64,000 nucleotides of DNA from Imbricaverruca yamaguchii (taxonomy: Eukaryota; Arthropoda; Thecostraca; Neoverrucidae), in the NCBI GenBank assembly GCA_034440575.1, contig JAOTOL010001657.1, forward strand, positions 1,628,001 to 1,692,000, written 5' to 3'. Under the pieces are notes generated by a model. The model had not been told where the DNA came from and did no database searches. It saw only the letters and a list, made by a program, of their open reading frames with translations. The position numbers and the translations under genes are program-made. Shown here piece after piece: positions 1-39,624 of the stretch. Within the stretch, counting starts at the first letter, position 1, and each line of letters opens with the position of its first letter.

Positions 1-155
1 ACGTTCTAGACCCTTGAAGGCGAGCTTGTCGATGTAGGAAATGCGGTTGCCCTCCATGTTGAGTGTGGTGAGCTGCCTGAGGTCTGAGAAGACGCCGGCC
101 GGTATCACCTTGATTTGGTTGTTAGCCAGCACCAAGGTATCCAAACTGGTGAGGC
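1..155 (-). CDS. LRR protein gene, exon 6, runs off the left edge (LRRs 6-7)
   Basis: The acceptor GTTTCCAG at 157-156 is followed by two bases that complete a glycine, then 51 codons to the window edge. It encodes LDTLVLANNQI at residue 247 and LTTLNMEGNRI at 271, ending FKGLER. A CTGAC at 176-172 is a good branch-point candidate, with its A 18 bases upstream of the exon. The exon is open to position 1, so the rest of the LRR domain and any C-terminal cap, membrane segment or GPI signal lies outside the window. What the protein binds cannot be judged here. Confidence 0.9.
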
Positions 156-237
156 CTGGAAACACGGGCTGGTCAGCACGGGACCTTCCGGTGATGAACT
201 GCACAGGTGACATGTGTGTGGTGCTGGCACACGTCAG

Positions 238-1148
238 GTGGCTAGACGTTCCGTCAGGTAGCTGGACGTTCCGTCCGGTAGCTGGACGTTCCGTCAGGTA
301 GCTGGACGTTCCGTCAGGTAGCTGGACGTTCCGTCAGGTAGCTGGACGTTCCGTCAGGTAGCTGGACGTTCCGTCCGGTAGCTGGACGTTCCGTCATATA
401 GCTGGACGTTCCGTCAGGGTAGCTGGACGTTCGTCGCTTGTAGCTGGACGTTCCGTCAGGTAGCTGGACGTTCCGTCAGGTAGCTGGACGTTCCGTCCGG
501 TAGCTGGACGTTCCGTCAGGTAGCTGGACGTTCCGTCATATAGCTGAACATTCCGTCAGGTAGCTGGACGTTCCGTCAGGTAGCTGGACGTTCCGTCAGG
601 TAGCTGGACGTTCCGTCAGGTAGCTGGACGTTCCGTCAGGTAGCTGGACGTTCCGTCATGTAGCTGGACGTTCCGTCAGGTAGCTGGACGTTCCGTCAGG
701 TAGCTGGACGTTCTCCGGTAGCTGGACGTTCCGTAGGTAGCTGGACGTTCCGTCATATAGCTGTTCCGTCAGGTAGCTGGACGTTCCGTCAGGTAGCTGG
801 ACGTTCCGTCAGGTAGCTGGACGTTCCGTCATATAGCTGGACGTTCCGTCAGGTAGCTGGACGTTCCGTCAGGTAGCTGGACGTTCCGTCATATAGCTGG
901 ACGTTCCGTCAGGTAGCTGGACGTTCCGTCAGGTAGCTGGACGTTCCGTGGTGCTGGACGTTCCTGGTAGCTGGACGTTCCGTATAGCTGAACATTCCGT
1001 CAGGTAGCTGGACGTTCCGTCAGGTAGCTGGACGTTCCGTCAGGTAGCTGGACGTTCCGTCAGGTAGCTGGACGTTCCGTCAGGTAGCTGGACGTTCCGT
1101 CATGTAGCTGGACGTTCCGTCAGGTAGCCGGACATTCTGGACGTTCGG
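238..1148. repeat. 20-bp minisatellite
   Basis: About 45 head-to-tail copies of CAGGTAGCTGGACGTTCCGT with single-base variants (catatagctg, ccggtagctg) and a few shortened copies. It lies in the last intron of the LRR gene, beginning about 80 bases before the exon 6 acceptor. Confidence 0.97.
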
Positions 1149-1452
1149 CCAGGCCGACATTTTGGTTCAGCTCAGACCGTGGGTAAGGAGACATGTGCTT
1201 AAAACATGCGAAGGGTTGCGTGACTCAGACTCCTTGGATAGCAGACATGTGGCGACGATTTATGGGTTTAGAAAAGGACAATCGTGTCTTTATGTCTTAA
1301 TCCGCAGGACAAGAAGCATGGTGGTCAGACATTGTGGCAAGGTGGCAAGGTCTAAGTTGCATAAACATAGATCTTGGGCAGGAGACGTATGGTTCAGTCC
1401 TTGAGCATACAACTTGTAATTTAGACCGAGAGAGAGAACGTGAGGTTCAGAC

Positions 1453-4400
1453 CATGGTGTGGACATGGTGTGGACGTGGTGTGTACATGGTGTGTACATG
1501 GTGTGTACATGGTGTGGACGTGGTGTGTACATGGTGTGTACATGGTGTGGACGTGGTGTGTACATGGTGTGGACGTGGTGTGTACATGGTGTGGACGTGG
1601 TGTGGACATGGTGTGGACATGGTGTGGACATGGTGTGAACGTGGTGTGAACGTGGTGTGGACATGGTGTGGACATGGTGTGTACATGGTGTGGACGTGGT
1701 GTGAACATGGTGTGGACATGGTGTGAACGCGGTGTGTACATGGTGTGAACGCGGTGTGGACGTGGTGTGGACGTGGTGTGAACGTGGTGTGTACATGGTG
1801 TGGACATGGTGTGGACGTGGTGTGTACATGGTGTGGACGTGGTGTGGACATGGTGTGGACGTGGTGTGGACATGGTGTGGACGTGGTGTGGACATGGTGT
1901 GGACGTGGTGTGGACATGGTGTGGACGTGGTGTGTACATGGTGTGGACGTGGTGTGTACATGGTGTGGACATGGTGTGTACATGGTGTGGACGTGGTGTG
2001 TACATGGTGTGGACGTGGTGTGTACATGGTGTGGACATGGTGTGGACGTGGTGTGGACATGGTGTGGACGTGGTGTGGACATGGTGTGGACATGGTGTGG
2101 ACGTGGTGTGGACATGGTGTGGACGTGGTGTGTACATGGTGTGGACGTGGTGTGTACATGGTGTGGACGTGGTGTGAACGCGGTGTGGACGTGGTGTGGA
2201 CGTGGTGTGAACGTGGTGTGTACATGGTGTGGACGTGGTGTGTACATGGTGTGTACATGGTGTGAACGTGGTGTGGACGTGGTGTGTACATGGTGTGGAC
2301 GTGGTGTGCACATGGTGTGGACGTGGTGTGTACATGGTGTGGACGTGGTGTGTACATGGTGTGTACATGGTGTGTACATGGTGTGTACATGGTGTGGACA
2401 TGGTGTGTACATGGTGTGGACATGGTGTGTACATGGTGTGGACATGGTGTGGACATGGTGTGTACATGGTGTGGACGTGGTGTGTACATGGTGTGGACAT
2501 GGTGTGTACATGGTGTGGACGTGGTGTGTACATGGTGTGGACATGGTGTACTGGTGTGTACATGGTGTGGACATGGTGTGGACATGGTGTGGACGTGGTG
2601 TGTACATGGTGTGGACGTGGTGTGACATGGGTGTGGTGTGGACGTGGTGTGTACATGGTGTGGACGTGGTGTGTACATGGTGTGGACGTGGTGTGTACAT
2701 GGTGTGGACATGGTGTGGACGTGGTGTGTACATGGTGTGGACGTGGTGTGTACATGGTGTGGACGTGGTGTGTACATGGTGTGGACATGGTGTGTACATG
2801 GTGTGGACGTGGTGTGTACATGGTGTGGACGTGGTGTGGACATGGTGTGGACGTGGTGTGACATGGTGGACGGTGTGTACATGGTGTGGACATGGTGTGG
2901 ACATGGTGTGGACATGGTGTGGACATGGTGTGTACATGGTGTGGACATGGTGTGTACATGGTGTGGACATGGTGTGGACGTGGTGTGTACATGGTGTGGA
3001 CGTGGTGTGTACATGGTGTGGACGTGGTGTGGACATTGGTGTGACATGGTGTGTACATGGTGTGGACGTGGTGTGTACATGGTGTGGACGTGGTGTGGAC
3101 GTGGTGTGGACATGGTGTGGACATGGTGTGTTGGACATGGTGTGTACATGGTGTGGACGTGGTGTGGACATGGTGTGGACATGGTGTGGACATGGTGTGG
3201 ACGTGGTGTACATGGTGTGGACGTGGTGTGTACATGGTGTGGACATGGTGTGACGTGGTGTGTACATGGTGTGGACGTGGTGTGTACATGGTGTGGACAT
3301 GGTGTGGACATGGTGTGGACATGGTGTGGACGTGGTGGACATGGTGTGGACGTGGTGTGGACGTGGTGTGGACATGGTGTGGACGTGGTGTGGACATGGT
3401 GTGGACGTGGTGTGTACATGGTGTGGACGTGGTGTGTACATGGTGTGGACGTGGTGTGGACATGGTGTGGACGTGGTGTGGACATGGTGTGGACATGGTG
3501 TGGACATGGTGTGGACGTGGTGTGTACATGGTGTGGACGTGGTGTGTACATGGTGTGGACGTGGTGTGTACATGGTGTGGACATGGTGTGGACATGGTGT
3601 GTACATGGTGTGTACATGGTGTGGACATGGTGTGGACATGGTGTGGACATGGTGTGGACATGGTGTGTACATGGTGTGGACATGGTGTGGACATGGTGTG
3701 TACATGGTGTGTACATGGTGTGGACGTGGTGTGTACATGGTGTGTACATGGTGTGTACATGGTGTGGACATGGTGTGGACATGGTGTGTACATGGTGTGG
3801 ACGTGGTGTGTACATGGTGTGGACATGGTGTGGACGTGGTGTGTACATGGTGTGTACATGGTGTGTACATGGTGTGGACATGGTGTGGACATGGTGTGTA
3901 CATGGTGTGGACATGGTGTGGACATGGTGTGGACATGGTGTGGACATGGTGTGTACATGGTGTGTACATGGTGTGTACATGGTGTGGACATGGTGTGTAC
4001 ATGGTGTGGACGTGGTGTGTACATGGTGTGGACATGGTGTGTACATGGTGTGTACATGGTGTGTACATGGTGTGTACATGGTGTGTACATGGTGTGGACA
4101 TGGTGTGTACATGGTGTGTACATGGTGTGGACGTGGTGTGTACATGGTGTGGACATGGTGTGTGTGTGGACATGGTGTGGACGTGGTGTGACATGGTGTG
4201 GACATGGTGTGTACATGGTGTGACATGGTGTGACATGGTGTGGACATGGTGTGTACATGGTGTGGACATGGTGTGTACATGGTGTGTACATGGTGTGGAC
4301 ATGGTGTGTACATGGTGTGGACATGGTGTGTACATGGTGTGTACATGGTGTGGACATGGTGTGTACATGGTGTGTACATGGTGTGGACATGGTGTGTACA

Positions 4401-6282
4401 TGGTGTGTACATGGTGTGTACATGGTGTGTACATGGTGTGTACATGGTGTGTACATGGTGTGTACATGGTGTGTACATGGTGTGGACATGGTGTGGACAT
4501 GGTGTGGACATGGTGTGTACATGGTGTGGACATGGTGTGTACATGGTGTGGACATGGTGTGTACATGGTGTGGACGTGGTGTGGACATGGTGTGGACGTG
4601 GTGTGTACATGGTGTGGACATGGTGTGTACATGGTGTGGACGTGGTGTGTGGACATGGTGTGGACGTGGTGTGGTGGTGTGACATGGTGTGACATGGTGT
4701 GTACATGGTGTGTACATGGTGTGTACATGGTGTGTACATGGTGTGTACATGGTGTGGACATGGTGTGGACGTGGTGTGTACATGGTGTGGACGTGGTGTG
4801 TACATGGTGTGGACGTGGTGTGTACATGGTGTGGACATGGTGTGTACATGGTGTGTACATGGTGTGTACATGGTGTGACGTGGTGTGGACATGGTGTGGT
4901 GGTACATGGTGTGGACGTGGTGTGTACATGGTGTGGACATGGTGTGTACATGGTGTGTACATGGTGTGTACATGGTGTGTACATGGTGTGTACATGGTGT
5001 GGACATGGTGTGTACATGGTGTGGTACATGGTGTGGACGTGGTGTGTACATGGTGTGGACATGGTGTGGACATGGTGTGGACATGGTGTGGACATGGTGT
5101 GTACATGGTGTGTACATGGTGTGGACATGGTGTGGACATGGTGTGGACATGGTGTGGACATGGTGTGGACATGGTGTGTACATGGTGTGGACATGGTGTG
5201 GACGTGGTGTGTACATGGTGTGGACGTGGTGTGTACATGGTGTGTACATGGTGTGTACATGGTGTGTACATGGTGTGTACATGGTGTGGACGTGGTGTGG
5301 ACGTGGTGTGTACATGGTGTGTACATGGTGTGTACATGGTGTGTACATGGTGTGTACATGGTGTGTACATGGTGTGTACATGGTGTGGACATGGTGTGTA
5401 CATGGTGTGTACATGGTGTGTACATGGTGTGTACATGGTGTGGACGTGGTGTGTACAGACGTGTGTGGGTGTGTACATGGTGTGGACGTGGTGTGTACAT
5501 GGTGTGGACATGGTGTGACATGGTGTGGACGTGGTGTGTACATGGTGTGGACATGGTGTGTACATGGTGTGTACATGGTGTGGACATGGTGTGGACATGG
5601 TGTGTGACATGGTGTGTGACATGGTGTGTACATGGTGTGTACATGGTGTGTACATGGTGTGGACATGGTGTGGACATGGTGTGTACATGGTGTGGACATG
5701 GTGTGGACATGGTGTGTACATGGTGTGGACATGGTGTGTACATGGTGTGGACATGGTGTGGACATGGTGTGGACATGGTGTGGACGTGGTGTGGACATGG
5801 TGTGGACATGGTGTGGACATGGTGTGACGTGGTGTGGACATGGTGTGGACATGGTGTGGACATGGTGTACATGGTGTGGACATGGTGTACAGTGTGAACG
5901 TGGTGTGTTACATGGTGTGGACATGGTGTGGACATGGTGTGGACATGGTGTGGACATGGTGTGGACATGGTGTGTACATGGTGTGGACGTGGTGTGTACA
6001 TGGTGTGGACATGGTGTGGACGTGGTGTGTACATGGTGTGTACATGGTGTGGACATGGTGTGGACATGGTGTGGACATGGGGTGAACATGGTGTGGAAAT
6101 GGCGTGGACATGGTGTGGACATGGTGTGGACATGATGTGGACATGATGTGGACATAGTTGGACATGATGTGGGCATGGCTGGACATGGTGTCGACATGGG
6201 TCCACATGTCGTGGATGTTTTGTGGACATGGGGTGAAAATGGTGTGGACATGGTGTGGACATGGTTGGACATGATGTGGACA
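1453..6282. repeat. 11-bp satellite-like array, 4.8 kb
   Basis: Roughly 440 copies of GTGTGGACATG and its variants GTGTGTACATG, GTGTGGACGTG and GTGTGAACGTG. Variants are mixed in local patterns rather than blocks, with rare one- or two-base indels that shift phase. Because 11 is not a multiple of 3 and the unit lacks stops, long open frames arise on both strands (peptide period 11, for example HHVHTMSTPCP). These are not genes. The array sits inside an intron and its C-rich strand is the pre-mRNA sense strand. Confidence 0.97.
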
Positions 6283-6481
6283 GCCCGCGGCTGGTTGTAC
6301 AGTTTGCCGATCCGGAGTGCTCTGGCAGGCGGCCATAACGTGGCCAGATCGCCGAACAGCACCTCGGTTAAGCACGGGCGGGAGCGTTCAACTTGACAAA
6401 GGTCAGCGGAAAGGTGTCGACGAGTGCAACGGGGGCGAACTATCGCGCGCCAAATGTCCGCAGCTGGCGGCTACTGGTCGT
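6283..6481. other. Unique spacer between the two 11-bp arrays
   Basis: About 200 bases of non-repetitive, GC-rich intronic sequence. No gene or element was recognised. Confidence 0.6.
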
Positions 6482-7793
6482 CTAGTGCGGGTCTGGTGTG
6501 GGTCAGGTGCGGGTCTGGTATGGGTCTGGTGCGGGTCTGGTGTGGGTCTGGTGTGGGTCTAGTGCGGGTCTGGTGTGGGTCTGGTGTGGGTCTGGTGCGG
6601 GTCTGGTATGGGTCTGGTGTGGGTCTGGTGCGGGTCTGGTGTGGGTCAGGTGTGGGTCTGGTGCGGGTCTGGTGTGGGTCTGGTGCGGGTCTGGTGTGGG
6701 TCTGATGTGGGTTTGGTGTGGGTCTGGTGCGGGTCTGGTGTGGGTCTGGTGCGGGTCTGGTGCGGGTCTGGTGTGGGTCTGGTGTGGGTCTGGTGCGGGT
6801 CTGGTGTGGGTCTGGTGCGGGTCTGGTGCGGGTCTGGTGCGGGTCTAGTGTGGGTCTGGTGCGGGTCTGGTGTGTGTCTGGTGTGGGTCTGGTGCGGGTC
6901 TAGTGTGTGTCTGGTGTGGGTCTGGTGTGTGTCTGGTATGGGTCTGGTACTGGTCTGGTGCGGGTCTGGTGTGGGTCTGGTGTGGGTCTGGTGCGGGTCT
7001 GGTGTGGGTCTGGTGTGTGTCTGGTATGGGTCTGGTACTGGTCTGGTGCGGGTCTGGTGTGGGTCTGGTGCGGGTCTGGTGCGGGTCTGGTGTGGGTCTG
7101 GTGCGGGTCTAGTGTGTGTCTGGTGTGGGTCTGGTGTGTGTCTGGTATGGGTCTGGTACTGGTCTGGTGCGGGTCTGGTGTGGGTCTGGTGTGGGTCTGG
7201 TGCGGGTCTGGTGTGGGTCTGGTGTGGGTCTGGTGCGGGTCTGGTGTGGGTCTGGTGCGGGTCTGGTGTGGGTCTGGTGCAGGTCTGGTGTGGGTCTGGT
7301 GCGGGTCTGGTGTGGGTATGGTGTGGGTCTGGTGCGGGTCCGGTGTGGGTCTGGTGTAGGTATGGTGCGGGTCTGGTGCGGGTCTGGTGCGGGTCTGATG
7401 TGGGTCTGGTGTGTGTCTGGTGTGGGTCTGGTGCGGGTCTAGTGTGGGTCTGGTGTGGGTCTGGTGTGTGTCTGGTATGGGTCTGGTACTGGTCTGGTGC
7501 GGGTCTGGTGTGGGTCTGGTGTGGGTCTGGTGCGGGTCTGGTGTGGGTCTGGTGTGGGTCTGGTGCGGGTCAGGTGCGGGTCTGGTGCGGGTCTGGTGCG
7601 GGTCTGATGTGGGTCTGGTGTGGGTCTGGTGCGGGTCTGGTGTGGGTCTGGTGCGGGTCTGGTGCGGGTCCGGTGCGGGTCCGGTGTGGGTATGGTGTGG
7701 GTCTGGTGCGGGTCCGGTGTGGGTCTGGTGTAGGTCTGGTGCGGGTCTGGTGCGGGTCTGGTGCGGGTCTGATGTGGGTCTGGTATGGGTCCA
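6482..7793. repeat. Second 11-bp array, unrelated unit
   Basis: About 119 copies of GGGTCTGGTGC or GGGTCTGGTGT. A longer block containing the variants GTGTGTCTGG, GGTATGGG and GGTACTGG recurs near 6925, 7010, 7135 and 7465, so higher-order repeats exist. The top strand has regularly spaced GGG and GG runs that could form G-quadruplexes. Confidence 0.96.
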
Positions 7794-9540
7794 GGTGTCG
7801 ACAAACAGCACCGGAGAGGTCAGCCGGGTCAGGCGACTCTTCCGCGCGTGTCGAACACGGCAATCCAGTCAGTTGAAGAGCAGTTCCTAGTCAGATCGCA
7901 TAACTGTCATGTTGCCATAGCAACGGGCCAGCTGAGACATGGGTGAACAAAATTATCTAAGCGTTGCTGTTGCAGCCAAGCTAACCCGAGAAGCCCCCTG
8001 CTTTGTTACCCTGCCTAAACATATGTACTAATAGTTACCCGAAGGAGCATGAATCAAGGATTTCGGCGGAAAGCAAACGCAATCAGAAAGTTTCACTCAG
8101 TAGGTTTATGATACAGGGCCAGCATGAAGCAGAATTTGTCGCGTAGATAATGAATGAAAATGAAATGAAAATGAAAATGAATAATGAAACACCATTTTAA
8201 TTTTATGCTGCTCTTGAAGAATTTGTCACTTGCAATCCATAGCACTTTTTCCCAACGAACGAGGCAATCAAGGTAATGTTATTAAACCAGATTCAACAGA
8301 TCTTAAGAAGTATTTATGAAGTTGGCGTATGTGCACATTTCTAAATACATTGTCATCCCTCTCATTCAGACAAAAATCGAATGACTACAATAAATTGTTC
8401 GTTAACACTCAGAATTTGAAACCTCACCTCCGCCTCGATGGGGAGGTGGGGGGGGGGAGGGGGCGCCGAACGCTTATGATGTCAGAGGTCGGCGGGAAGC
8501 TGGAAGAGATTGCGGGATGGGAAGGAAATGGTCTGGGTCCGCATGTGCAGTCACATACACTGTCGCACACACAGTGACCGACTGTCGCTCAAACGCAGCA
8601 TGTCAGCAACAGCAATTATTTTTTCAGGTAGGGAAATGCCTGCTTTTTGCGTACATATTCCACGTATTCTTAAAGTTCCTGTGCTGATTTTATCTCTGCG
8701 ATAGAATCACTTAGGTTGCGCAACTGGATTTACTCAGTCGTACTTATAAATTATTGCCGAAGTTGGCCGGTTGAAACTAGTTTCAGCCACCGGCATGCTA
8801 ATGGAAGTGACCTGCTTTTCGCCAATCATGGAAGTAGTTTGCGAGCAGCTTCCTGCTATGTTCCGCAAAATCCGTCGTGCTCAATCTTCCTGCTGTGGTG
8901 AGGCTCCTACTAAAAGCACAGCACAGCCATGACCCAGACCCAGACTCAGGCTCAGGCTTTCATAAGAACCATCTACGATCGACTTGTGGCTATTAAGGTT
9001 CCACGCCAGTGGCGTATCTAGAGGATAGCGGTAGCAACGTACATACATGCATGTATACGCGTAGCACATCCATGCATTACAGTGTGGTGTACGGAGCAAA
9101 GCTGTGCGGGTGTTATTCAGGATCCCTGCGCGGGAGGCGCATCGGGTGGTCACCGAACAACGGGATTGCCAGTCGGAGGACGTCCAAACTCGGCAGAGAA
9201 CATCCAAACTCGGCGGCAGCAAGCTCGCCCTTTGCCCGCTTCGGCTCGCCGCCAGCGCACACACAAGTCGTCATCCCTCCCCGTGGGCCGGTCACAAGTC
9301 TCGGTCTCCAGCGAGAATCAGCTGGTCAGAGCCGCAGGGTCACCGTGTCCCCACACCTTGTGCGTCAGGCGTGGCGCGTCATACGACACGAGGTCATCTG
9401 TACCCAGCCAGTCCAGGCTCCACGGGTGTAGCAGATAGCAGGTGGGGGAAACCGTCCCTCCAACTTGAAGGTTGGGAGGGCAGTGCCCCCTGAACTTTAT
9501 GCACGCTTGACTTTACCGTTGGTAAGAAAACTAATAATTA
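7794..9540. other. Unique intronic sequence
   Basis: Mostly unique, with a small GAAAATGAA-type run at 8148-8190 and a G-run at 8446-8461. At 9011 the stretch CAGTGGCGTATCTAG looks like the terminus of a DNA transposon (compare the hAT-like element at 17422), but no matching opposite end was found before 9870. No convincing coding exon. Confidence 0.5.
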
Positions 9541-9573
9541 TATAAATATGTACATGCATATCAAATCTACATA

Positions 9574-9604
9574 CACATACACACACCCACACACACACAC
9601 ACAT

Positions 9605-9688
<84 letters not shown>

Positions 9689-9721
9689 ACATATATATGT
9701 GTATGTGTTTGTATATATATG

Positions 9722-9793
<72 letters not shown>

Positions 9794-9794
9794 A
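9574..9794. repeat. (CA)n-(TA)n-(TG)n microsatellite
   Basis: A run of CA/ACAC, then about 30 TA steps, an interrupted middle (atgtatgtatac...tgtttg), again about 30 TA steps, and TG at the end. The CA and TG flanks are reverse complements, so the block is roughly palindromic and could extrude a cruciform. Confidence 0.95.
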
Positions 9795-9859
9795 TAATGC
9801 AACGAAGTACATACGACGTAAGCTGAAGGTAATTAAGCTGAAACTGAGGGAGGTGAGCT

Positions 9860-16616: not shown

Positions 16617-16750
16617 CTCGGAACTCGCCCGCCTTGACGGTCGAGATGTGGTTGCTGGTGAGCTCCAGTCGCTCCAGGGCGCCGAGCGGCCGGATGGCGC
16701 CCGACGGCACCGCCGACAGCTGGTTCTGCGCCAGGTTGAGGGTGTGCAGG
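16617..16750 (-). CDS. LRR protein gene, exon 5 (LRRs 4-5)
   Basis: 134 bases, entering in phase 2 and leaving in phase 1. The acceptor is TCTCGGCAG; an alternative CAG 21 bases upstream is phase 0 and would break the LRR period. It encodes LHTLNLAQNQL at residue 199 and LERLELTSNHI at 223, then KAGEFRG across the next junction. The donor is CGAG|GTGAGG. The joined text at the 4/5 border reads AFLGLPGLHTLNL, a textbook LRR spacing. Confidence 0.9.
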
Positions 16751-20384: not shown

Positions 20385-21260
20385 ACCTCAGCGTCCCCTC
20401 ATTAACGGCGCGTAGCAGCTCCGACCGCGGCTCCAACGTCGAGCAGCACCCGACGTAGATGAGCACATTGGTACATCTCGTGTCTATCAGTGGCCGACGT
20501 GCCACGCCGTCTACAGACATTTCCACCACCGGGAGCGCGCTCACACCTCCGGAGACGGCGCTTGCGTTGGCGCGCCCCCGGCAAGGTTTCCCACTCGTCG
20601 CGGGCAGGCAACCGCGAAATGACCGACGACGCCGCAAGTCCAACAGCGCCGCCGCAGGGCCAGGGTCAGACGTCGTGCAGCGGCGGCACCGACCGCGGCC
20701 GACGCAGCGGTAGCAGCGACGATCGCGGCCTCCTCGGTCGCGCGACGCCTCTCCGCCTTCAACGCCGTGCGTGCGCGTGGCAGCGTGCTGAGCAGATCCA
20801 CTTCTCCTGGCCAGGCTCCCGCCAGCACGACAGCGCTAACGGCCGCGGGTAACCCGTTCACGAGCGCGGCCGCCATCTGCTGGTCCGACACGCCGCCGAA
20901 CAGAGCGGCGTACTTCTGCAGGCTCGTCAGGAACACATCGACGCTCTCGTTGTCCTGGAGTCGGAGCGTCGTGAACGCCGCGTGCGCCTCGCAGGCGTCC
21001 ATCCCGAACGCCACGAACAGCGCGTCCCGCCCACGAACAGCTGCCGCCGGTCCTCCGGCGGTAGCTGCTGCCAGATGGCGAACGCGCCGTCTTTCAGGCG
21101 CATCGGCAGCACGTCCGCAGGCGACGCACCCCGGTACTCGCACAGCAGGACCGCTTGCGTGCACCAGCCCACGACATCGCCGGTTCCGTCGAAGGTGTCG
21201 ATCAGGCGCGGGTCAAACTTCTGACCGGCCGGCGACTCGTCCGCCACTCGCACTGCCGCA
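20385..21260 (-). pseudogene. Broken gag-protease remnant of an LTR retrotransposon
   Basis: Minus-strand frames give a gag-like start (FDPRLIDTFDGTGDVVGW) from about 21253. The frame shifts near 21030, where GCTGTTCGTGG occurs twice. The next frame carries a capsid-like region and one CX2CX4HX4C zinc knuckle near 20650. Gag stops at about 20541. An overlapping frame leads to an aspartic-protease-like segment whose active-site triad reads D-T-R rather than D-T/S-G, near 20480. Downstream pol is missing: the frame runs into a SINE tail at 20384. No LTRs were found. The frameshift, the triad change and the truncation indicate a dead copy; the family within LTR elements is not determined. Confidence 0.65.
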
Positions 21261-23480: not shown

Positions 23481-23656
23481 CCGGGCAGTCCGAGGAAGGC
23501 GTCGTCGTCCACCTTGGCGATGTTGTTGTGGAAGAGGCTGAGCCGCGACATGTTGACCAGCCCGGTGAAGCCCTGCCGGGGCACGTTGTCGATCTGGTTG
23601 GTGTTGAGGTTGAGCGAGTGCACGTTGTGGAGCCGCCGGAACGCACCGCTGGGTAT
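23481..23656 (-). CDS. LRR protein gene, exon 4 (LRRs 1-3)
   Basis: 176 bases, entering in phase 0 and leaving in phase 2. It completes the first LRR after exon 3 (NKIKT then IPSGAF) and encodes two more: VHSLNLNTNQI at residue 151 and MSRLSLFHNNI at 175. The acceptor is GTGCCGCCAG and the donor is CCGG|GTACGC. A 24-bp minisatellite starts about 22 bases before the exon and supplies several CTGAC copies at branch-point distance. The exact 24-residue period across the 3/4 junction is the strongest evidence that these exons belong to one gene. Confidence 0.9.
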
Positions 23657-26926: not shown

Positions 26927-27007
26927 CGGCGGCGCTACAGGACCGAAACGGTCGGCGCGCCTCAGAGCCAATCACGAACTAACCAGCTGATCTGCGTGTG
27001 TGCGGCG

Positions 27008-27252
27008 ACTCACCGTTTTGATCTTGTTGTCGCAGGTGTCGATGGCGACCAGCGACTTCGTCAACGACTTGACTCGCATGCATGCGGCCAACTCACCGTT
27101 TTGATCTTGTTGTCGCTGAAGTCGATGGTGACCAGCGACTTGGTTAGCGAGGTGAGCGCGTGCGGCCAACTCACCGTTTTGATCTTGTTGTCGCTGAAGT
27201 CGATGGTGACCAGCGACTTGGCCAGCGAGGTGAGCGCGTTGTCCTCGACGAC
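27008..27252 (-). repeat. Tandem duplication straddling exon 3 and its splice donor
   Basis: Three copies of the exon 3 end plus the start of intron 3. The first two are 78 bp apart, the second and third 83 bp. Each holds the coding motif DNKIKT followed by a GTGAGT or GTGAGTCG donor. Copies 1 and 2 are nearly identical. Copy 3 has more substitutions (TIDFSDN became AIDTCDN) and is out of frame. Because 78 is 26 codons, splicing from the second donor would keep the frame and add one LRR-like unit. Confidence 0.85.
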
Positions 27253-27387
27253 GGCCAGGTGCGAGCGCAGGATCAGCAGGTACTTGATGCTGAGGCTCAT
27301 GAAGAAGTAGTCGGTGAGTCGCGGCAGGCTGCAGTCGCGGATCTTCATGTACTGGATCACCTGCTCGAACGGGTCCGCGTCAGCTGT
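27175..27387 (-). CDS. LRR protein gene, exon 3 (cap to first LRR half)
   Basis: 213 bases, exactly 71 codons, phase 0 at both ends. The acceptor CCTACGTCAG is the only nearby one that keeps the frame open from exon 2; the AG four bases downstream would run into a stop. The exon contains C87 (KIRDCSLP), a diverged leucine-rich region, and the first half of a canonical LRR (LVTIDFSDNKIKT, residues 127-139). The donor is AACG|GTGAGT. The last part of the exon plus its donor is duplicated downstream (see the repeat at 27008-27252), so two further GTGAGT donors follow. Residue numbers refer to the joined protein. Confidence 0.85.
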
Positions 27388-28786: not shown

Positions 28787-28841
28787 GATGGCCGCGATAA
28801 GCGCAGATGAGCCGAGTGGCACGGCCGTCTGGGCGGACTGG

Positions 28842-29560: not shown

Positions 29561-29687
29561 GCCCGCGAGCGTGTCGAATCTCCGATCGCGGCGCAACGAC
29601 GTCGGCAATCCCGGGCGGCGACGAGCGGCGAACGGCCGCGCTTCGTTCGTCGCCCCGTGACCGGCGGCCGGCGCGACGGTCGGCCCG

Positions 29688-31075
29688 CTGTACGTGGCCA
29701 GTACACCGAGCCGGCGACCGGCCCGCTGTGAGTGGCCAGTCCACCGAGCCGGCGACCGGCCAGCTGTAAGTGGCCAGTACACCGAGCCGGCGACCGGCCC
29801 GCTGTGAGTGGCCAGTCCACCGAGCCGGCGACCGGCCCGCTGTGAGTGGCCAGTCCACCGAGCCGGCGACCGGCCCGCTGTAAGTGGCCAGTCCACCGAG
29901 CCGGCGACCGGCCCGCTGTAAGTGGCCAGTACACCGAGCCGGCGACCGGCCAGCTGTAAGTGGTGGCCAGTCCACCGAGCCGGCGACCGGCCCGCTGTAA
30001 GTGGCCAGTACACCGAGCCGCCGACCGGCCCGCTGTAAGTGGCCAGTCCACCGAGCCGGCGACCGGCCCGCTGTGAGTGGCCAGTCCACCGAGCCGGCGA
30101 CCGGCCCGCTGTGAGTGGCCAGTCCACCGAGCCGGCGACCGGCCCGCTGTAAGTGGCCAGTCCACCGAGCCGGCGACCGGCCCGCTGTAAGTGGCCAGTA
30201 CACCGAGCCGGCGACCGGCCCGCTGTAAGTGGCCAGTACACCGAGCCGGCGATCGGCCCGCTGTAGTGGCCAGTACACCGAGCCGGCGACCGGCCACCAG
30301 CTGTACGTGGCCAGTCCACCGAGCCGGCGACCGGCCAGCTGTAAGTGGCCAGTACACCGAGCCGGCGACCGGCCAGCTGTAAGTGGCCAGTACACCGAGC
30401 CGGCGACCGGCCCGCTGTACGTGGCCAGTCCACCGAGTCGGCGACCGGCCAGCTGTAAGTGGCCAGTACACCGAGCCGGAGATCGGCCCGCTGTGAGTGG
30501 CCAGTCCACCGAGCCGGCGATCGGCCCGCTGTGAGTGGCCAGTCCACCGAGCCGGCGACCGGCCCGCTGTAAGTGGCCAGTCCACCGAGCCGGCGATCGG
30601 CCCGCTGTGAGTGGCCAGTCCACCGAGCCGGCGATCGGCCCGCTGTGAGTGGCCAGTCCACCGAGCCGGCGACCGGCCCGCTGTAAGTGGCCAGTCCACC
30701 GAGCCGGCGACCGGCCAGCTGTAAGTGGCCAGTACACCGAGCCGGCGACCGGCCCGCTGTAAGTGGCCAGTCCACCGAGCCGGCGACCGGCCAGCTGTAA
30801 GTGGCCAGTACACCGAGCCGGCGACCGGCCAGCTGTAAGTGGCCAGTACACCGAGCCGGCGATCGGCCAGCTGTAAGTGGTGGCCAGTCCACCGAGCCGG
30901 CGATCGGCCCGCTGTAAGTGGTCAGTCCACCGAGCCGGCGATCGGCCCGCTGTAAGTGGCCAGTCCACCGAGCCGGCGATCGGCCCGCTGTAAGTGGTCA
31001 GTCCACCGAGCCGGCGATCGGCCCGCTGTAAGTGGGCAGTCCACCGAGCCGGCGATCGGCCCGCTGTAAGTCAGA
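29688..31075. repeat. 38-bp minisatellite ending near exon 2
   Basis: About 36 copies of a unit starting CCGAGCCGGCGACCGGCCCG and ending GTGGCCAGTACA or GTGGCCAGTCCA. Both strands are open over long stretches; this is a satellite effect. It lies in intron 2, ending about 165 bases from the exon 2 donor. Confidence 0.96.
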
Positions 31076-31240
31076 GCCAGTCCACCAAGACGGTGCCGCG
31101 ATCGGCCACGAGTACGGACGCGGCCGGGCGAGCAGCCAGGTGGGCAGGAGGACGGACAGGAGGGCAGGAGAGGGAGGTCAGGAGACGGAGGACAGGAGAG
31201 GAAGGTCAGGAGTTCAGAAGGGCCCCCGCTGGCGCCTCAC

Positions 31241-31320
31241 CGTGTTCGGCATCTCCTTGATGTGGTTCATGGCCATGGTGAGTGTGTCCGTGTCGGCCGA
31301 GTCGCACACGATGTCCAGAC
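31241..31320 (-). CDS. LRR protein gene, exon 2 (N-terminal cap)
   Basis: This 80-base exon finishes the split glycine of exon 1 and adds 26 residues, including the fourth cap cysteine (C47 in motif LDIVCDSADTD). The acceptor GCCGCAG ends at 31321 and the donor CACG|GTGAGG starts at 31240, phase 0. Only about 40 bases separate the acceptor from the 16-bp satellite that begins at 31361. About 165 bases beyond the donor the 38-bp array begins. The call rests on frame, splice signals and the cysteine spacing shared with exon 1. Confidence 0.8.
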
Positions 31321-31360
31321 CTGCGGCGTCCAGACCAGCCGTTGCACGTCACGGGTGGCA

Positions 31361-34300
31361 CACTGTGCACTGTACACACTGCACACTGTACACTGTACAC
31401 ACTGTACACACTGTACACTGTACACACTGTACACACTGTACACACTGTACACTGTACACTGTACACTGCACACTGTACACTGCACACTGTACACTGTACA
31501 CTGTATACTGTACATTGTACACTGTACACACTGTACACTATCCACACTGTACACTGTACATTGTACACTGTACACTGTACACACTATACATTGTACACTG
31601 TACACACTGTACACTGTACAATGTACACTATACACTATACACTGTACACTGTATACTGTACATTGTACACTGTACACACTGTACACTATCCACACTGTAC
31701 ACTGTACATTGTACACTGTACACTGTACACACTATACATTGTACACTGTACACACTGTACACTGTACACACTGCACACTGTACACTGTATACTGTACACT
31801 GCACACTGTACACTGTACACTGTATACTGTACATTGTACACTGTACACACTGTACACTATCCACACTGTACACTGTACATTGTACACTGTACACTGTACA
31901 CACTATACATTGTACACTGTGCACACTGTGCACTGTACACACTGCACACTGTACACTGTACACACTGTACACTGTACACACTGTACACTGTACACACTGT
32001 ACACTGTACACACTGTACACTGTACACACTGTACACTGTACACACTGTACACTGTACACACTGTACACTGTACACACTGTACACTGTACACACTGTACAC
32101 TGTACACACTGTACACTGTACACACTGTACACTGTACACACTGTACACTGTACACACTGTACACTGTACACACTGTACACTGTACACACTGTACACTGTA
32201 CACACTGTACACTGTACACACTGTACACTGTACACACTGTACACTGTACACACTGTACACTGTACACACTGTACACTGTACACACTGTACACTGTACACA
32301 CTGTACACTGTACACACTGTACACTGTACACACTGTACACTGTACACACTGTACACTGTACACACTGTACACTGTACACACTGTACACTGTACACACTGT
32401 ACACTGTACACACTGTACACTGTACACACTGTACACTGTACACACTGTACACTGTACACACTGTACACTGTACACACTGTACACTGTACACACTGTACAC
32501 TGTACACACTGTACACTGTACACACTGTACACTGTACACACTGTACACTGTACACACTGTACACTGTACACACTGTACACTGTACACACTGTACACTGTA
32601 CACACTGTACACTGTACACACTGTACACTGTACACACTGTACACTGTACACACTGTACACTGTACACACTGTACACTGTACACACTGTACACTGTACACA
32701 CTGTACACTGTACACACTGTACACTGTACACACTGTACACTGTACACACTGTACACTGTACACACTGTACACTGTACACACTGTACACTGTACACACTGT
32801 ACACTGTACACACTGTACACTGTACACACTGTACACTGTACACACTGTACACTGTACACACTGTACACTGTACACACTGTACACTGTACACACTGTACAC
32901 TGTACACACTGTACACTGTACACACTGTACACTGTACACACTGTACACTGTACACACTGTACACTGTACACACTGTACACTGTACACACTGTACACTGTA
33001 CACACTGTACACTGTACACACTGTACACTGTACACACTGTACACTGTACACACTGTACACTGTACACACTGTACACTGTACACACTGTACACTGTACACA
33101 CTGTACACTGTACACACTGTACACTGTACACACTGTACACTGTACACACTGTACACTGTACACACTGTACACTGTACACACTGTACACTGTACACACTGT
33201 ACACTGTACACACTGTACACTGTACACACTGTACACTGTACACACTGTACACTGTACACACTGTACACTGTACACACTGTACACTGTACACACTGTACAC
33301 TGTACACACTGTACACTGTACACACTGTACACTGTACACACTGTACACTGTACACACTGTACACTGTACACACTGTACACTGTACACACTGTACACTGTA
33401 CACACTGTACACTGTACACACTGTACACTGTACACACTGTACACTGTACACACTGTACACTGTACACACTGTACACTGTACACACTGTACACTGTACACA
33501 CTGTACACTGTACACACTGTACACTGTACACACTGTACACTGTACACACTGTACACTGTACACACTGTACACTGTACACACTGTACACTGTACACACTGT
33601 ACACTGTACACACTGTACACTGTACACACTGTACACTGTACACACTGTACACTGTACACACTGTACACTGTACACACTGTACACTGTACACACTGTACAC
33701 TGTACACACTGTACACTGTACACACTGTACACTGTACACACTGTACACTGTACACACTGTACACTGTACACACTGTACACTGTACACACTGTACACTGTA
33801 CACACTGTACACTGTACACACTGTACACTGTACACACTGTACACTGTACACACTGTACACACTGTACACACTGTAAACACTGTACACTGTGTACCGTGCA
33901 TTGGATACTGCAAACTGCACACTGTACACGATGCACTGTACACTGTACACTATACACTATACACCGTACAGTGTACACTGTACACACTGTACACTGTACA
34001 CACTGTACACTGTACACACTGTACACTGTACACACTGTACACTGTACAATGTACACTGCACACTATACACACTAGACACTCTACACTGTACACTATACAC
34101 ACTGGACACTGTACGCTGTACACTGTACACTGTACACTGTACACTGTACACACTGGACACTGTACACTGTACACTGCACACTCTACACACTGGCACACTG
34201 TACACTGTACACTGTACACTGTACACTGTACACTGTACACACTGTACACTGTGCACCGTGCACCGTGCATTGCACACACTGTACACTGCACACTGTACAC

Positions 34301-35172
34301 TGGTGGACATTGTACGCTGTACACTGTACGCTGTACACTGTACGCTGTACACTGTACGCTGTACACTGTACGCTGTACACTGTACGCTGTACACTGTACG
34401 CTGTACACTGTACGCTGTACACTGTACGCTGCACACTGTACACACTGGACACTGGACACTGGACACTGGACACAGTACACTACACACTGTTCACACTGGA
34501 CAATGTATGCCGTACATTGTGCACACTGGACATTGTACACTGCAAACTGTACACTATACGCTGTACACGGCACACCGAACACTGTACACTGTACACTGTA
34601 CACTGTACACTGTTCATTGCACGTCATATGTGGCACGCCGGTACAGTGTACACTATACACTACATACTGTACAGTGTACACTATACACTATATACTATAT
34701 ACTATATACTGCACACTGCACACTGCACTTCATATATGGCACGCTAGTGCAATGCACACTATACACTGTATGCTGTACATTGTATTCTGTACATTGTACA
34801 CTGCACACTATGCACTGTACACCATGTACTGTACACTGCACACTGTATACTGTACACTGTACACTACACACTGTACACACTGGACGCAGTACACCACACA
34901 CATTATGCACTGTACACTGTACACTACACACTGTACACACTGTACACTGTACACACCGTACACTGCACACACTGTACACTGTACACTACACACTGTGCAC
35001 TGTACACACTAGACACTGCAGTGCACGTTATGTGGAGCACGCCACTTGTACACTGTACACTGCATAGTGTATCCTGCGCAGTATACACTGTACACTGTAC
35101 ACTGTACACTGTACACTGTACACTGCCCACTGTACCCTCTCACTGCACGTCATTTCAGCACGCCGACACACT
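31361..35172. repeat. 16-bp satellite, 3.8 kb, with a homogeneous core
   Basis: The unit CACACTGTACACTGTA is repeated about 119 times with no change visible by eye from about 31946 to 33856. The left flank (31361-31940) has a higher-order block of 170-180 bp seen three times. The right flank holds diverged units and a 14-bp subarray GTACGCTGTACACT at 34313-34430. It starts about 40 bases upstream of the exon 2 acceptor. Every unit contains two palindromic TGTACA hexamers and long alternating purine-pyrimidine runs. Confidence 0.97.
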
Positions 35173-36327
35173 GTACACTGGCCATTGCACCGATCACGCG
35201 GTATACTGACCCATCCGGCCTGCCAAGTCTTCACTGTCGCATCAAGCACACATTTTGTACCACCTGAACAGGCCTGTGGCTGCCGCATGTATTGGCGACT
35301 ATCAGGCTAATGAACCGTGCACGAAGTGTTCAATCAATATTATTACGTTCATTCAATGCATGATGGACGCCTCATGGGGTATGTTCAGTGGATTTATTCG
35401 CCTAGAGAGCTGGACATTTCCGCGACGCCCAGCTTTGCCACAGTATTGTTCAGAACTCATGACTGTCCATGTGAAATGAGAATATTGCGATCACAAATCA
35501 GAACTTAAAAAGAAGATATTCCTGTCTAAAAATAAGTGTGCACCCTACTTTAAACTACATTCAATGAGGAGCTCCACACATTAGCAGGCAGTTTATTCCA
35601 CTGCGTGACAATCACTACAGGGTGGCTTGGGTGACTGTTATTACAGACCGTTGATGCTACATACTGCAGACCGTTAACGTCATAAGTTGATTGAATGCCA
35701 CTCGCAAATCGAGCTGTTCCTTCAAAAACTGCACCTATTCTGCGTCGCTTGCTCTTTTTTTTTTGCTGGAATAACGTGAATAGAAGCGCGTTGGCGGCAA
35801 AAGCATTTTCTGTTGGCTCATTTGTCGCGTTGAAAATACTGCTGAAGCAAACCTATTGAATCAGCACCGTCCAATCGAGCCGTGTATGAAGCCGCCGCTT
35901 TTATCAATACCGAGAAGCGACACAACGAGCGTCTCGTCTCGCTCCTGGTGGACCCACGGCCTGCTGACCTGGCGCACGCTGAGAGGTCACCAAGCCGCCG
36001 CTGATTCTCAGCGCCGGCTTGTGCGACGCCGCCGAGAAACAGCGGCGTCGCACAAACCGCCAGTCCCGAATGCACTTCAAAGCAAAGTCGCGCCAGCTGG
36101 TTATGCGGCATGCTGTCAAGTGTGGACCCGCAGGCTAATTAGTGCAGCTCTGCGATTGGCGGTTAATTAGAGTGGCGCCCGTGTGGCTGCTGGTGGTACA
36201 CGCACACGGAGGCCCGGCGAAGGCCGACGACCGAGCCGCGCATGCGGCGCAATTCCGAGTCGCCCACACACAAGCCGCCGCTGGCGCTGCAGAACGGCGC
36301 GGGCTGCTGCCGCGTCGGCACTGCTCA
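35173..36327. other. Unique intronic sequence
   Basis: No repeat array or exon recognised, apart from a T-run at 35755-35764. Confidence 0.45.
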
Positions 36328-36717
36328 TTCGGATACGGATACGGATACGGATGTGGATACGGATGCAAATACGGACATGGATACGGATACGGATACGGAT
36401 ACGGATACGGATACGGATACGGATACGGATACGGATACGGATACGGATACGGATACGGATACGGATACGGATACGGATACGGATACGGATACGGATACGG
36501 ATACGGATACGGATACGGATACGGATACGGATACGGATACGGATACGGATACGGATACGGATGCGGATGCGGATACGGATGCGGATATGGATGCGGATAC
36601 GGATACGGATACGGATACGGATACGGATACGGATACGGATACGGATACGGATACGGATACGGATACGGATACGGATACGGATACGGATACGGATATGGAT
36701 ACGGATACGGATGCAAA
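36328..36717. repeat. (GGATAC)n hexanucleotide array
   Basis: About 65 hexamers, mostly GGATAC with GGATGC, GGATAT and GGACAT interruptions clustered at 36560-36600 and at both edges. Reading frames give DT, GY or SV dipeptide strings; intronic and not coding. Confidence 0.97.
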
Positions 36718-36964
36718 TGCCACCTGCAGGCTGCAGGTGCGGACGCCATTAGCGGTGCGGGACGGCGGCGGCGGCGCTCATCGGCGGCTGTCCGGTCGGC
36801 CGGACCGGCGGCCGGCCGGCGGGATTGGCCGCCGCTCGTGTCGGCCGCGCGGTCCGCCTGAGAGGCTTACCGCTAATCAAGCCGGCCGGCGCGGACGGGC
36901 GGTCGGCACGGACGGCCCGCCGGTCCGCCAGGGCTGGCGGCGGGCAGGTCGGGTCAGGCGCGCG

Positions 36965-37340
36965 ACAGGGGAACTCGGGTGATGAGAGTGGTGAGGGCCT
37001 CGGATGAGGAGCGTGGCTGGGGTACTCGGGTGAGGAACGTGGCTGGGGTACTCGGGTGATGAGAGTGGTGAGGGCCTCAGATGAGGAGCGTGGCTGGGGA
37101 ACTCGGGTGAGGAACGTGGCTGGGGTACTCGGGTGATGAGAGTGGAGAGGGCCTCAGATGAGGAGCGTGGCTGGGGTACTCGGGTGATGAGAGCGGAGAT
37201 GGCTTCAGATGAGGAGCGTGGCTGGGGAACTCGGGTGAGGAACGTGGCTGGGGTACTAGGGTGATGAGAGTGGAGAGGGCCTCTGATGAGGAGGGTGGTA
37301 AGGGCTTCATGTGAGGAGCGCGGTCGGGGGACTCGGGTAA
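36965..37340. repeat. 77-bp composite minisatellite
   Basis: About five units made of two related halves that share GGCTGGGG and ACTCGGGTGA phrases. The order of halves is irregular, as expected from unequal exchange. Confidence 0.85.
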
Positions 37341-39500
37341 AGGGCGTGGTCGATGATCGCATGTGCGGGTCGTAGTCGGGTCATCGGGTGAAGCCTGCTG
37401 TGTGTCATCTCGAGTGCGGTGTCGAATCTGACCGTAGGCGTCGTGTGAGGAATCGGTCTCAGGTGAGCGGTCTCATTGAACGGAAGTGGGTTTCTCCAGC
37501 ACCAGCTGCCAGGACTTTCTACCGACGCGGGTCGTGTCACACCTGCCTGGCGGGCTGAACCGTTTGATGTGTCATGTGCCGGACGTGTTCGCTTCGCTCG
37601 GTCAACACCCGCTGTGTGGAGCACACGCCCAGTGTAATTACACTCACGCTGGCGGACAATCGAACGCAATACGCGTCAGGATGGCCAGCTAGCTAATTGC
37701 GCTTTTGGTGCATCGACTGCTGACGTCATCTCGCGTCGCTCGATTGCCCACTCGGCTCATCAGCTGAGGCTTGTCTGTGATGGTGTGCTGACTAAGTGCT
37801 CGTATTCGCGAGCGCGCCCGCCACCCGTGCCCGCTCGGCAGCGAGAGCCGTCCCGACCGGATACACACGCGCGCGGTGCGAAAGTGACGCCTTCCCAGCC
37901 GGGCCGGTTGTCTCCTGGTCGCCGCCGGCGTTGAGAGCCCAGCCGCCTGCTCGGCGGCTCAGCGGACGATACTTGCCGTGGCTGCGGCCGGCGGGGTGTG
38001 CACCGGCGCCGTCCGGGGGCGGGGGGGGGGGCGTACTCACATGTCAATATGGTGCCGTCGGGCCGCGGGCGCGCAGGACACCTCGCTGCAACGAGCGCGA
38101 GCAGAGATCACGTAAGCACAACACGCAGCCGGCATCGAGAGCGAAAACAACTCAGTGGCCAGCAGACGGCACTCGGCCGCAAACAACCAAAACATCGGCA
38201 GGTGGTGGGTGCTCAGACCAGTCGCGGGTGGGACGGGCTCGTGGGGAGCGGGCCGGCGGCCCGCTGTGCTCGGGTCAGTCGCCGCTCACCGGCTCGCAGT
38301 CCGCCCGATCACCAAGCGGCGCCACGGGCGGCGCCCAGCGGGGACCTGTGCCTATGCCGCCGCGCGCGTCGGGGGGTTCACTGGGCACGTTTTGGTTGTT
38401 TGGCGAGTTTTCCACAAAATAAATCTGTAAAAAGCCATGAGCAAAGGGCAGCAGCGAGAGCCGGCAGAGGGAGGTCGAAGACTGGGCGGCCGGGCGAGCG
38501 CCGAAGGAGCTTCTTCCGACTGGCATGCGCGGATCAGAGGCGGGCGAAGGCTGGAGCTGACCGGGGCGTGTTACCCTCATGCGGAGTGAGTGGCGCCAGG
38601 GACAGGGAGCAGAAACAGACAGAGACAGAGAGAGAGGTAAACCATAGAGTGTGTGCGGTGCAGCTGCGAAACCGCAAGCAGTCTACGGAACAGAGTGCAC
38701 CGGGCCGCATAAAACCCGCCAGCGCCAGCGTCCGTCGGCTCTGAGCCCTTAGCGAGATGAAGCGGTGAGCAAAGGGAGCCGGCTGGCGTTCGCCGCCGGT
38801 CGTGCGGTGCGCTCGAACTGACAGTCTCCGCCGGTGTGTTTGCCGGCTAACCGCGGACTCGGTCGAGGCTGGTTTTATGAAGCCCGTCTGCGAAGTCGAC
38901 TCGGAAATCGAGCCGAGGGCCGGCCGGCTGGCGAGACGCCGCCGGCCGTCGGCGGCTGGGCCGGTCTTACTTGAGTGGCCGGTGGCCGAGCGGGCGGCAG
39001 CGGGCCGACCGGAAGACCTCAGCCGGGTCCGCCTTTTGGCGCGGCGTCTGGCGGGACCGGCCGCGCGCCGCGCTTACCAGCTGCTCGATCGACTGAACTC
39101 GCGCGGGCCGGGCGCTGGCGGTGCAACAAACCTACGCGGCCGGCCGGCGCTCAGCGGGAACCGCCTGCCGGCCGGCCGGCCGCTCCGTCGCCCAGGCGCG
39201 CTCGCGCGCTCGCCCGCCTGCGTGGCCGGCCCCCGGCCGCCGGATGCCCCACCGCACCTGGAGGGTGGACGCGCACACCGACTACGTCTATCACGGTTTT
39301 ACAGATTTATTTTGTGTTGGATTCACTTGCCAGACGGCCGCAATGCGCGGCCGCCACAGGTCCGAGTGGTTGCGAGTGAGCGGAGGGCACGGCTGTTGCC
39401 GCCGCGCGGCCCCGCCCCTCCCCAGCGCCCAGCCCCTGCCCGGCGGCACAGCATGCGGGCCACGAGACGACGGCAGCGCCCCTGGCGGCCGCCCGCTTAC
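37341..39500. other. GC-rich part of intron 1
   Basis: Unique, very GC-rich, with G-runs near 38020. It contains an inverted pair of a short dispersed sequence: ACAAAATAAATCTGTAAAA at 38414-38432 (plus) and 39297-39315 (minus). No exon recognised on either strand. Confidence 0.5.
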
Positions 39501-39624
39501 CCTTGCTCTTGGTCTTGCACTTGCAGGGCAAGATTTTGCTGGGGCTGGGGCAACCGAAGCCGGCCAGCGAGAGCTGCAGGGTCGCCAGCAGCAGCAGCGC
39601 CCTCAGAGGCCATGAACACTGCAT
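39501..39624 (-). CDS. LRR protein gene, exon 1 (signal peptide and start of N-terminal cap)
   Basis: First coding exon of a secreted or cell-surface leucine-rich-repeat protein. The ATG lies at 39624-39622 in a good context (CACAATGC) and is the first one after an in-frame TAA about 45 bases upstream. It encodes 41 residues plus one base: a leucine-rich signal peptide over residues 1-22 (core LLLLATLQLSLAG), then C25, C34 and C36 of an LRRNT-type cap (motif ILPCKCKTKSKG). The donor AAGG|GTAAGC lies at 39500-39499, phase 1. Joining to exon 2 completes a glycine and gives C-x8-C-x-C-x10-C. An upstream 5'UTR exon is possible, since a CCCACAG acceptor-like site lies near 39665. From memory, this cap resembles arthropod matrix LRR proteins such as Convoluted or Artichoke; that is inference only. 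Confidence 0.85.

What the first reader, a model, noticed from the sequence alone, without database searches (positions are those of the whole stretch)
1..39624. A 39.6-kb LRR gene assembled from six exons threaded through satellite DNA
Six short minus-strand open segments, none striking alone, join through GT-AG introns in matching phases (1, 0, 0, 2, 1) into 294 residues: signal peptide, four-cysteine cap and seven LRRs starting every 24 residues (127 to 271). The 24-residue period runs through the three junctions within the repeat domain, which chance would hardly give. Coding sequence is about 2% of the span, so a simple long-ORF search would report the satellites and miss the gene.
Basis: partly seen in the sequence, partly recalled or inferred. 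Interest (0 to 1): 0.85.

Follow-up and report, generated by a model that had tools for sequence, protein, structure and literature searches.

The report
Arthropod LRR gene among minisatellites
The six pieces are real exons of an ordinary leucine-rich-repeat protein gene that is widespread in arthropods; the gene continues past the window, sits in an unusually repeat-rich stretch, and one exon end with its splice site has itself been copied in tandem.

Summary
The six minus-strand segments join in the stated phases into the stated 294 residues. They score 343.6 bits against a profile of seven arthropod homologues; the best of 5000 random chimeras scores 6.5. Corrections: the window cuts the gene. 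Three more exons lie in the same contig, giving nine exons over 58.4 kb and 479 residues: signal peptide, four-cysteine cap, 14 LRRs, C-terminal cysteine cap, hydrophobic tail. Exon 3 more likely starts at 27360, which removes nine residues absent from the six homologues aligned. Full-length relatives occur in decapods, a centipede, a horseshoe crab and a fly (36-45%), and one unnamed 2.4-kb contig matches at 66%: a new member of a known kind. Tandem repeats make up 43.5% of the gene span, 27-29% of its flanks and 8.2% of 16 pieces from elsewhere. The end of exon 3, donor included, is tandemly copied; the second donor is in frame and would add one LRR-like unit. No RNA of this species was available.

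The parts
39501..39624 (-). Coding exon 1: start codon, signal peptide, first three cysteines of the N-terminal cap; donor GTAAGC, phase 1
   Evidence: aligns to P0001 and others
31241..31320 (-). Coding exon 2: end of the cap (LDIVCDSAD...); donor GTGAGG, phase 0
27175..27360 (-). Coding exon 3, preferred form (acceptor gagcag|GTG): LRRs 1-2 and start of LRR 3; donor ACG|GTGAGT, phase 0
   Evidence: none of the 6 aligned homologues has the nine extra residues
27361..27387 (-).
27002..27239 (-). Tandem array of three copies of the exon-3 end plus donor. Copy 1 (27239-27162) is the true exon end; copy 2 (27161-27084) differs from it at 2 of 78 bases; copy 3 (27083-27002, 82 bases) is diverged and out of frame. 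ACG|GTGAGT occurs in each, last exon-type base 27175, 27097 and 27014
   Evidence: one match for the region in the genome (a search that skips simple repeats)
27097..27174 (-). 78-nt in-frame extension of exon 3 if the second donor is used: adds VSWPHALTSLTKSLVTIDFSDNKIKT, an LRR-like unit (hypothetical isoform)
   Evidence: LRR matches of exon 3 plus extension below Pfam's cut-offs
23481..23656 (-). Coding exon 4: rest of LRR 3, LRRs 4-5; donor GTACGC, phase 2
16617..16750 (-). Coding exon 5: LRR 6 and most of LRR 7; donor GTGAGG, phase 1
3..155 (-). Coding exon 6: end of LRR 7, LRR 8 and most of LRR 9; donor GTAAGT begins at window 2-1, phase 1. Exons 7-9 follow outside the window at contig C1424 positions 1623235-1623055, 1613548-1613409 and 1609479-1609214 (minus strand; window base 1 = 1628001)

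Best explanation
This is a protein-coding gene of an arthropod, probably a crustacean (closest named homologues are decapods), found once in its genome, with nine coding exons on the minus strand over 58.4 kb. It encodes a 479-residue extracellular-type protein: signal peptide, four-cysteine N-terminal cap, a solenoid of 14 LRRs of about 24 residues, a cysteine C-terminal cap, and a short hydrophobic tail that I read as a GPI-attachment signal. Shown: exon structure, ordered homology along the whole protein, conservation across arthropods, solenoid fold of the closest homologue. Inferred: that all nine exons are spliced together in this species, that the tail is a GPI signal, and that the protein works like other capped extracellular LRR proteins, binding a protein partner on the concave face at the cell surface or in haemolymph (adhesion, axon or tissue recognition, or an immune-inducible haemolymph role; about 0.4 for this class of function, lower for any one role). 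The introns have swelled with minisatellites in a neighbourhood that is repeat-rich as a whole; the exon-3 tail array is a small coding-plus-donor example of the same tandem duplication.
For: Exons, phases and splice sites. tblastn of P0001 finds all nine exons in order on one strand in 144 kb (weakest exon 2 at E 0.001). 317 of 485 aligned columns (65%) identical to P0001 (with a 478-residue draft), whose 495 codons lie in a 2413-base contig, so without introns of this size. Homologues in Eriocheir, Portunus, Palaemon, Strigamia and Tachypleus at 36-45% over 89-94% and Hermetia at 41% over 89%. Cap cysteines 25, 34, 36 and 47, and 406, 408 and 457 (488-residue numbering), invariant in 7 of 7 aligned rows. 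Chimera control 343.6 versus at most 6.5 bits. GC at third positions 0.91 versus 0.47 at the other two. AlphaFold2 of P0001: solenoid, mean pLDDT 82.6, blocks of the repeat region mostly above 90; the nearest PDB folds are LRR solenoids.
Against: Pfam's LRRNT and LRRCT models are not among the matches at E up to 0.1. The C-terminal tail is largely an alanine run from a GCC repeat, so the GPI reading is weak, and the Strigamia homologue lacks such a tail. Fold matches include cytosolic SHOC2 and bacterial LRR proteins, so the fold does not by itself argue for an extracellular role.
Confidence: 0.93

Rival explanations
1. The transcript uses the second, identical donor at 27097 always or sometimes, so the species makes a 505-residue protein with a 15th LRR-like unit (a recently gained repeat).
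For: Copies 1 and 2 carry the same nine donor bases and the unit is 78 nt, a multiple of three and open; the join reads through cleanly. The added unit VSWPHALTSLTKSLVTIDFSDNKIKT repeats the L..L.L..N.I pattern, and exon 3 plus extension matches LRR_8, LRR_4 and LRR_1 at 25.0, 25.2 and 20.4 bits.
Against: Those three matches lie below Pfam's cut-offs (27, 27, 20.6), and exon 3 without the extension was not scanned for comparison. None of the 6 homologues aligned has an insertion there. The unit is 26 residues instead of 24. AlphaFold2 of the 88-residue piece alone gave no usable model, with helices instead of strands (mean pLDDT 51.8), which tests little without an alignment. No RNA.
Confidence: 0.15
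2. The locus is a decaying pseudogene: repeat expansion has broken transcription or splicing although the exons are still open.
For: 43.5% of the gene span is tandem repeat; arrays lie 39, 21 and 32 nt upstream of exons 2, 4 and 8.
Against: All nine exons are open with intact GT-AG sites and strong homology. No second copy of like identity was listed in the genome (133 of 226 candidates scored), so it would be the loss of a gene found from horseshoe crab to fly.
Confidence: 0.04
3. Chance assembly of unrelated open segments.
For: In this GC-rich DNA open AG..GT segments are abundant: 2563 to 4731 candidates per exon slot.
Against: Best of 5000 random assemblies 6.5 bits against 343.6; ordered exon-by-exon match to P0001.
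Confidence: 0.001

Closest known systems
P0001 (unnamed 2413-base contig of source 'lgn', 495 aa)
   Same: Same length class, same caps and repeats, 65-66% identity over nearly the whole protein
   Different: About 15 extra residues at the exon 1/2 junction; organism not named; no exon-3 insertion
Arthropod homologues P0021 (Eriocheir sinensis), P0022 (Portunus trituberculatus), P0023 (Palaemon), P0024 (Strigamia maritima), P0025 (Tachypleus tridentatus), P0087 (Hermetia illucens)
   Same: Match at 36-45% over 89-94% of the query; shared cap cysteines and repeat phasing, checked by alignment for the first five
   Different: Source names (LRIG1, LRRC4C-like, IGFALS, uncharacterized) disagree with each other; Strigamia lacks the hydrophobic tail
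Drosophila CG14762 (lead only; I recalled the likeness, no sequence comparison was made)
   Same: Catalogued as 470 aa, signal sequence, LRRNT, 14 LRR, LRRCT1 (PMC2235866, one passage seen), the same architecture
   Different: Orthology not tested. Listed in an immune-inducible haemolymph secretome as unknown (PMC12005426, passage); RNAi gave a slight, not significant reduction in Spiroplasma titre (PMC8084229, passage); listed as 'LRR cell adhesion' in a neural-outgrowth RNAi screen (PMC2435276, passage). I opened 4 of the 9 papers that one search listed
LGR4/5, LRIG1, LINGO-1, chondroadherin, TLR13 and Toll ectodomains (PDB)
   Same: Capped extracellular LRR solenoids; among the nearest in fold (P0001 model) and, for LGR4/5 and LRIG1, in sequence
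   Different: 19-28% identity in the rows; from general knowledge those proteins, chondroadherin excepted, carry Ig, transmembrane or TIR parts not found here

Membership tests
Arthropod capped-LRR group (P0001, P0021-P0025, P0087) | Full-length homology with conserved cap cysteines and LRR array | tested here: met
   14 repeats counted in this protein with a regular expression that gave 15 matches, one of them in the signal peptide and discounted
Arthropod capped-LRR group (P0001, P0021-P0025, P0087) | Hydrophobic stretch near the C-terminus after the last cysteine | tested here: inconclusive
   Present by eye here and in 6 of 7 homologues, absent in Strigamia; here mostly an alanine run. No predictor was run
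Arthropod capped-LRR group (P0001, P0021-P0025, P0087) | One-to-one orthology by gene tree | not tested
   No tree built; in its own genome the next best-scoring match is at 36% identity
Canonical LRRNT / LRRCT flanking domains (Pfam) | Match to the Pfam LRRNT and LRRCT models | tested here: not met
   one search lists seven LRR families for the 479-residue protein at E up to 0.1, neither model among them; the cysteines are there but with a long first spacing (C-8-C-1-C-10-C)
LRIG / LINGO / LRRC4C (names given to some homologues) | Ig domain and transmembrane segment after the LRRs (recalled definition) | tested here: not met
   No Ig family; only 31 residues follow the last cysteine, with no room for an Ig domain or a cytoplasmic part
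Toll / TLR | TIR domain (recalled definition) | tested here: not met
   No TIR family; the protein ends soon after the C-cap
Drosophila CG14762 | Sequence orthology | not tested

The most novel reading that the evidence does not exclude
A minisatellite mutation process that is strong at this locus has captured an exon end together with its donor site, making a ready-made alternative exon that adds a complete LRR in frame: a repeat protein gaining a repeat through splice-site duplication, not through exon or unit duplication, caught while copies 1 and 2 still differ by only 2 of 78 bases.
Probability: 0.12. Interest if true: 0.5.

Novelty: new member of a known kind. Interest (0 to 1): 0.27.

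Why it matters
It gives a complete model of a conserved but, as far as seen here, uncharacterised arthropod surface or haemolymph LRR gene that a long-ORF scan would miss. It also marks a locus where tandem repeats grew to within a few tens of bases of splice acceptors without visible damage to the coding exons. The duplicated in-frame donor in exon 3 is a small, directly testable case of how an LRR protein might gain a repeat.

Tried and rejected
Reading the gene as complete at the window edge: rejected, exons 7-9 found. One-exon-per-repeat origin: rejected, the introns fall at varying points of the repeat (after residues 130.0, 188.67, 233.33, 284.33, 344.67 and 391.33 against repeat starts 118 to 385). 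Rfam found nothing at gathering score in the window. Structure of exon 3 plus extension alone: uninformative. Organism: not established. An open COX1 (and what I recognise as COX2) in contig C996 reads under code 5, but I spent the last protein search on the family and not on naming it. I first suspected a barnacle. The Pollicipes pollicipes assembly (PMC8917513, passages seen) is of similar size (770 Mb against 767 Mb here) but has 17 large scaffolds, N50 47 Mb, while the contigs seen here reach 5.8 Mb; this neither shows nor excludes a barnacle. No Pollicipes name is in the listing. Paper searches for barnacle LRR settlement genes, minisatellite introns in crustacean LRR genes, and extracellular LRR/GPI in arthropods returned 0 papers each.

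Dropped or weak rows: of the 19, 68 and 40 proteins listed, I used P0001, P0021-P0025 and P0087; the others, mostly distant LRR proteins at 24-43% over part of the query, were not used. In one search the second exon-3 variant was started one codon too late (27357), and the alignment shown there is with that 478-residue draft; corrected to 27360.
Full report
Check of the observation. Pfam finds only LRR families in it, LRR_8 at 7.4e-45. To ask about chance I built a profile from seven homologues only and scored 5000 random assemblies of AG..GT-flanked, phase-matched, open segments of about the same lengths from both strands of the 144 kb around the gene, true exons excluded.

The window cuts the gene. 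The window is bases 1628001-1692000 of contig C1424, 4.95 Mb, in a 767-Mb assembly of 1430 contigs. With 80 kb of neighbouring sequence, tblastn of the closest homologue P0001 finds three more exons in order on the same strand. Splice sites resolve to: exon 6 ending at window base 3 (GAAC|GTAAGTAC), exon 7 1623235-1623055, exon 8 1613548-1613409, exon 9 1609479-1609214 with the stop codon. The phases are 1,0,0,2,1,1,2,1; introns run from 3.5 to 16.5 kb; the coding span is 58.4 kb.

Exon 3 start. None of the six homologues aligned has these nine residues, and an acceptor 27 nt downstream (gagcag|GTG, exon from 27360) removes them in frame. I prefer 27360; the upstream site has, by eye, the more pyrimidine-rich lead-in and could be an alternative.

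The protein. With 27360 the product is 479 residues: a hydrophobic N-terminus, cysteines 25, 34, 36 and 47, then 14 LRR starts at 70, 93, 118, 142, 166, 190, 214, 238, 262, 287, 311, 336, 360 and 385, a C-terminal cap with further cysteines, and 31 residues after the last cysteine ending in an Ala-rich hydrophobic tail. The regular expression gave 15 matches; the first, at 11, is the signal peptide. No signal-peptide or GPI predictor was available; both readings are by eye. Third-position GC is 0.91 against 0.47 for positions one and two. Introns do not sit in a fixed register with the repeats.

Relatives. P0001 (495 aa, unnamed, one 2413-base contig of source 'lgn', which I take, from recall, to be an assembled read set) is identical at 317 of 485 aligned columns. 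An open frame of 495 codons in a 2.4-kb contig is what a spliced transcript would look like, so it is indirect evidence that these exons belong together; an intron-poor gene in that species would look the same. It has about 15 extra residues at the exon 1/2 junction. Named homologues are two crabs, a prawn, a centipede and a horseshoe crab at 36-45% and black soldier fly at 41% over 89%. Cap cysteines are invariant in the seven rows. AlphaFold2 of P0001 with five homologues gives a solenoid (mean pLDDT 82.6). Its nearest solved structures are LRR ectodomains such as LGR4/5, TLR13, LRIG1 and LINGO-1, but also cytosolic SHOC2 and bacterial LRR proteins. In its own genome this gene gave the only matches above 48% identity; the best-scoring other locus is at 36% (133 of 226 candidates scored, counts are lower bounds).

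Function. None of the homologues fetched here comes with a tested function. From architecture I infer a secreted or GPI-anchored binding protein. Drosophila CG14762, which I recalled as a likely counterpart and did not compare by sequence, has the same catalogue architecture (470 aa, signal, LRRNT, 14 LRR, LRRCT1; PMC2235866, passage). It is listed among infection-induced haemolymph proteins as unknown (PMC12005426, passage), in a table of a neural-outgrowth RNAi screen (PMC2435276, passage), and its RNAi gave a slight, not significant reduction in Spiroplasma titre (PMC8084229, passage). Five further papers listed were not opened. These are leads, not evidence about this gene.

Repeats. With one TRF setting, 43.5% of the 58.4-kb gene span is tandem repeat, against 8.2% pooled over 60 kb in 16 pieces at positions I picked in eight contigs, two of them far off on C1424 itself; single pieces ranged from 0 to 47.6%. 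The repeats are not confined to the gene: the rest of the window has 29.3% and the 80 kb below the window, which holds exons 7-9, 26.7%. The gene span has GC 0.557 against 0.474 pooled. Arrays come to 39, 21 and 32 nt upstream of exons 2, 4 and 8. Intron 4 is the exception (2% repeats). So the neighbourhood is unusual for this genome, within a sample of 16.

Exon-3 tail array. Bases 27239-27002 hold three copies of the last 65 bases of exon 3 plus the start of intron 3. Copies 1 and 2 differ at 2 of 78 bases; copy 3 is diverged and out of frame, with a stop reached first. Each holds ACG|GTGAGT. The second donor is 78 nt on and in frame; using it would give 505 residues with one more L..L.L..N.I unit. 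Exon 3 with the extension matches LRR models only below their cut-offs and gave no usable fold alone. The region has one match in the genome. Tandem duplication carrying splice sites is discussed in print as a route to new introns (for example PMC4974935, search listing with start of abstract only); here it would give an extra repeat. Whether the second donor is used is unknown.

Verdict. A real, ordinary, conserved gene, correctly spotted but incompletely bounded, in an unusually repeat-rich setting.

Noticed in passing
window 40657-42501, + strand: 614-codon ORF with a reverse transcriptase domain (RVT_1, 5.1e-26), which I take for a non-LTR retrotransposon fragment, about 1 kb upstream of the LRR gene's start codon.
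   Followed up: partly
G000 contig C996, about 268-275 kb (L024 end, L017, start of L025): Mitochondrial-type stretch: open COX1 (PF00115) and, recognised by eye, COX2 and parts of ND2 and ND1 under code 5, 31% GC in L017, inside a 405-kb contig with long TC/GA repeats: a young nuclear copy of mitochondrial DNA or an assembly join.
   Followed up: partly
contig C1424, exon 9 (1609479-1609214): The C-terminal hydrophobic tail is mostly alanines encoded by a GCC run; 34 bases of exon 9 count as tandem repeat, so the tail may vary in length between individuals.
   Followed up: no
window 31359-35135 and 29681-31093: Exon 2 (80 bp) lies between a 3.8-kb array of 7/16-bp units and a 1.4-kb array of 38-bp units; the first comes to 39 nt from its acceptor, so the branch point may lie in or near the array.
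   Followed up: no
window 20541-21164, - strand: ORF with a sub-threshold zinc-knuckle match (zf-CCHC, E 5.3e-4, 20.4 bits against a cut-off of 20.8), possibly a retroelement remnant in intron 4.
   Followed up: no
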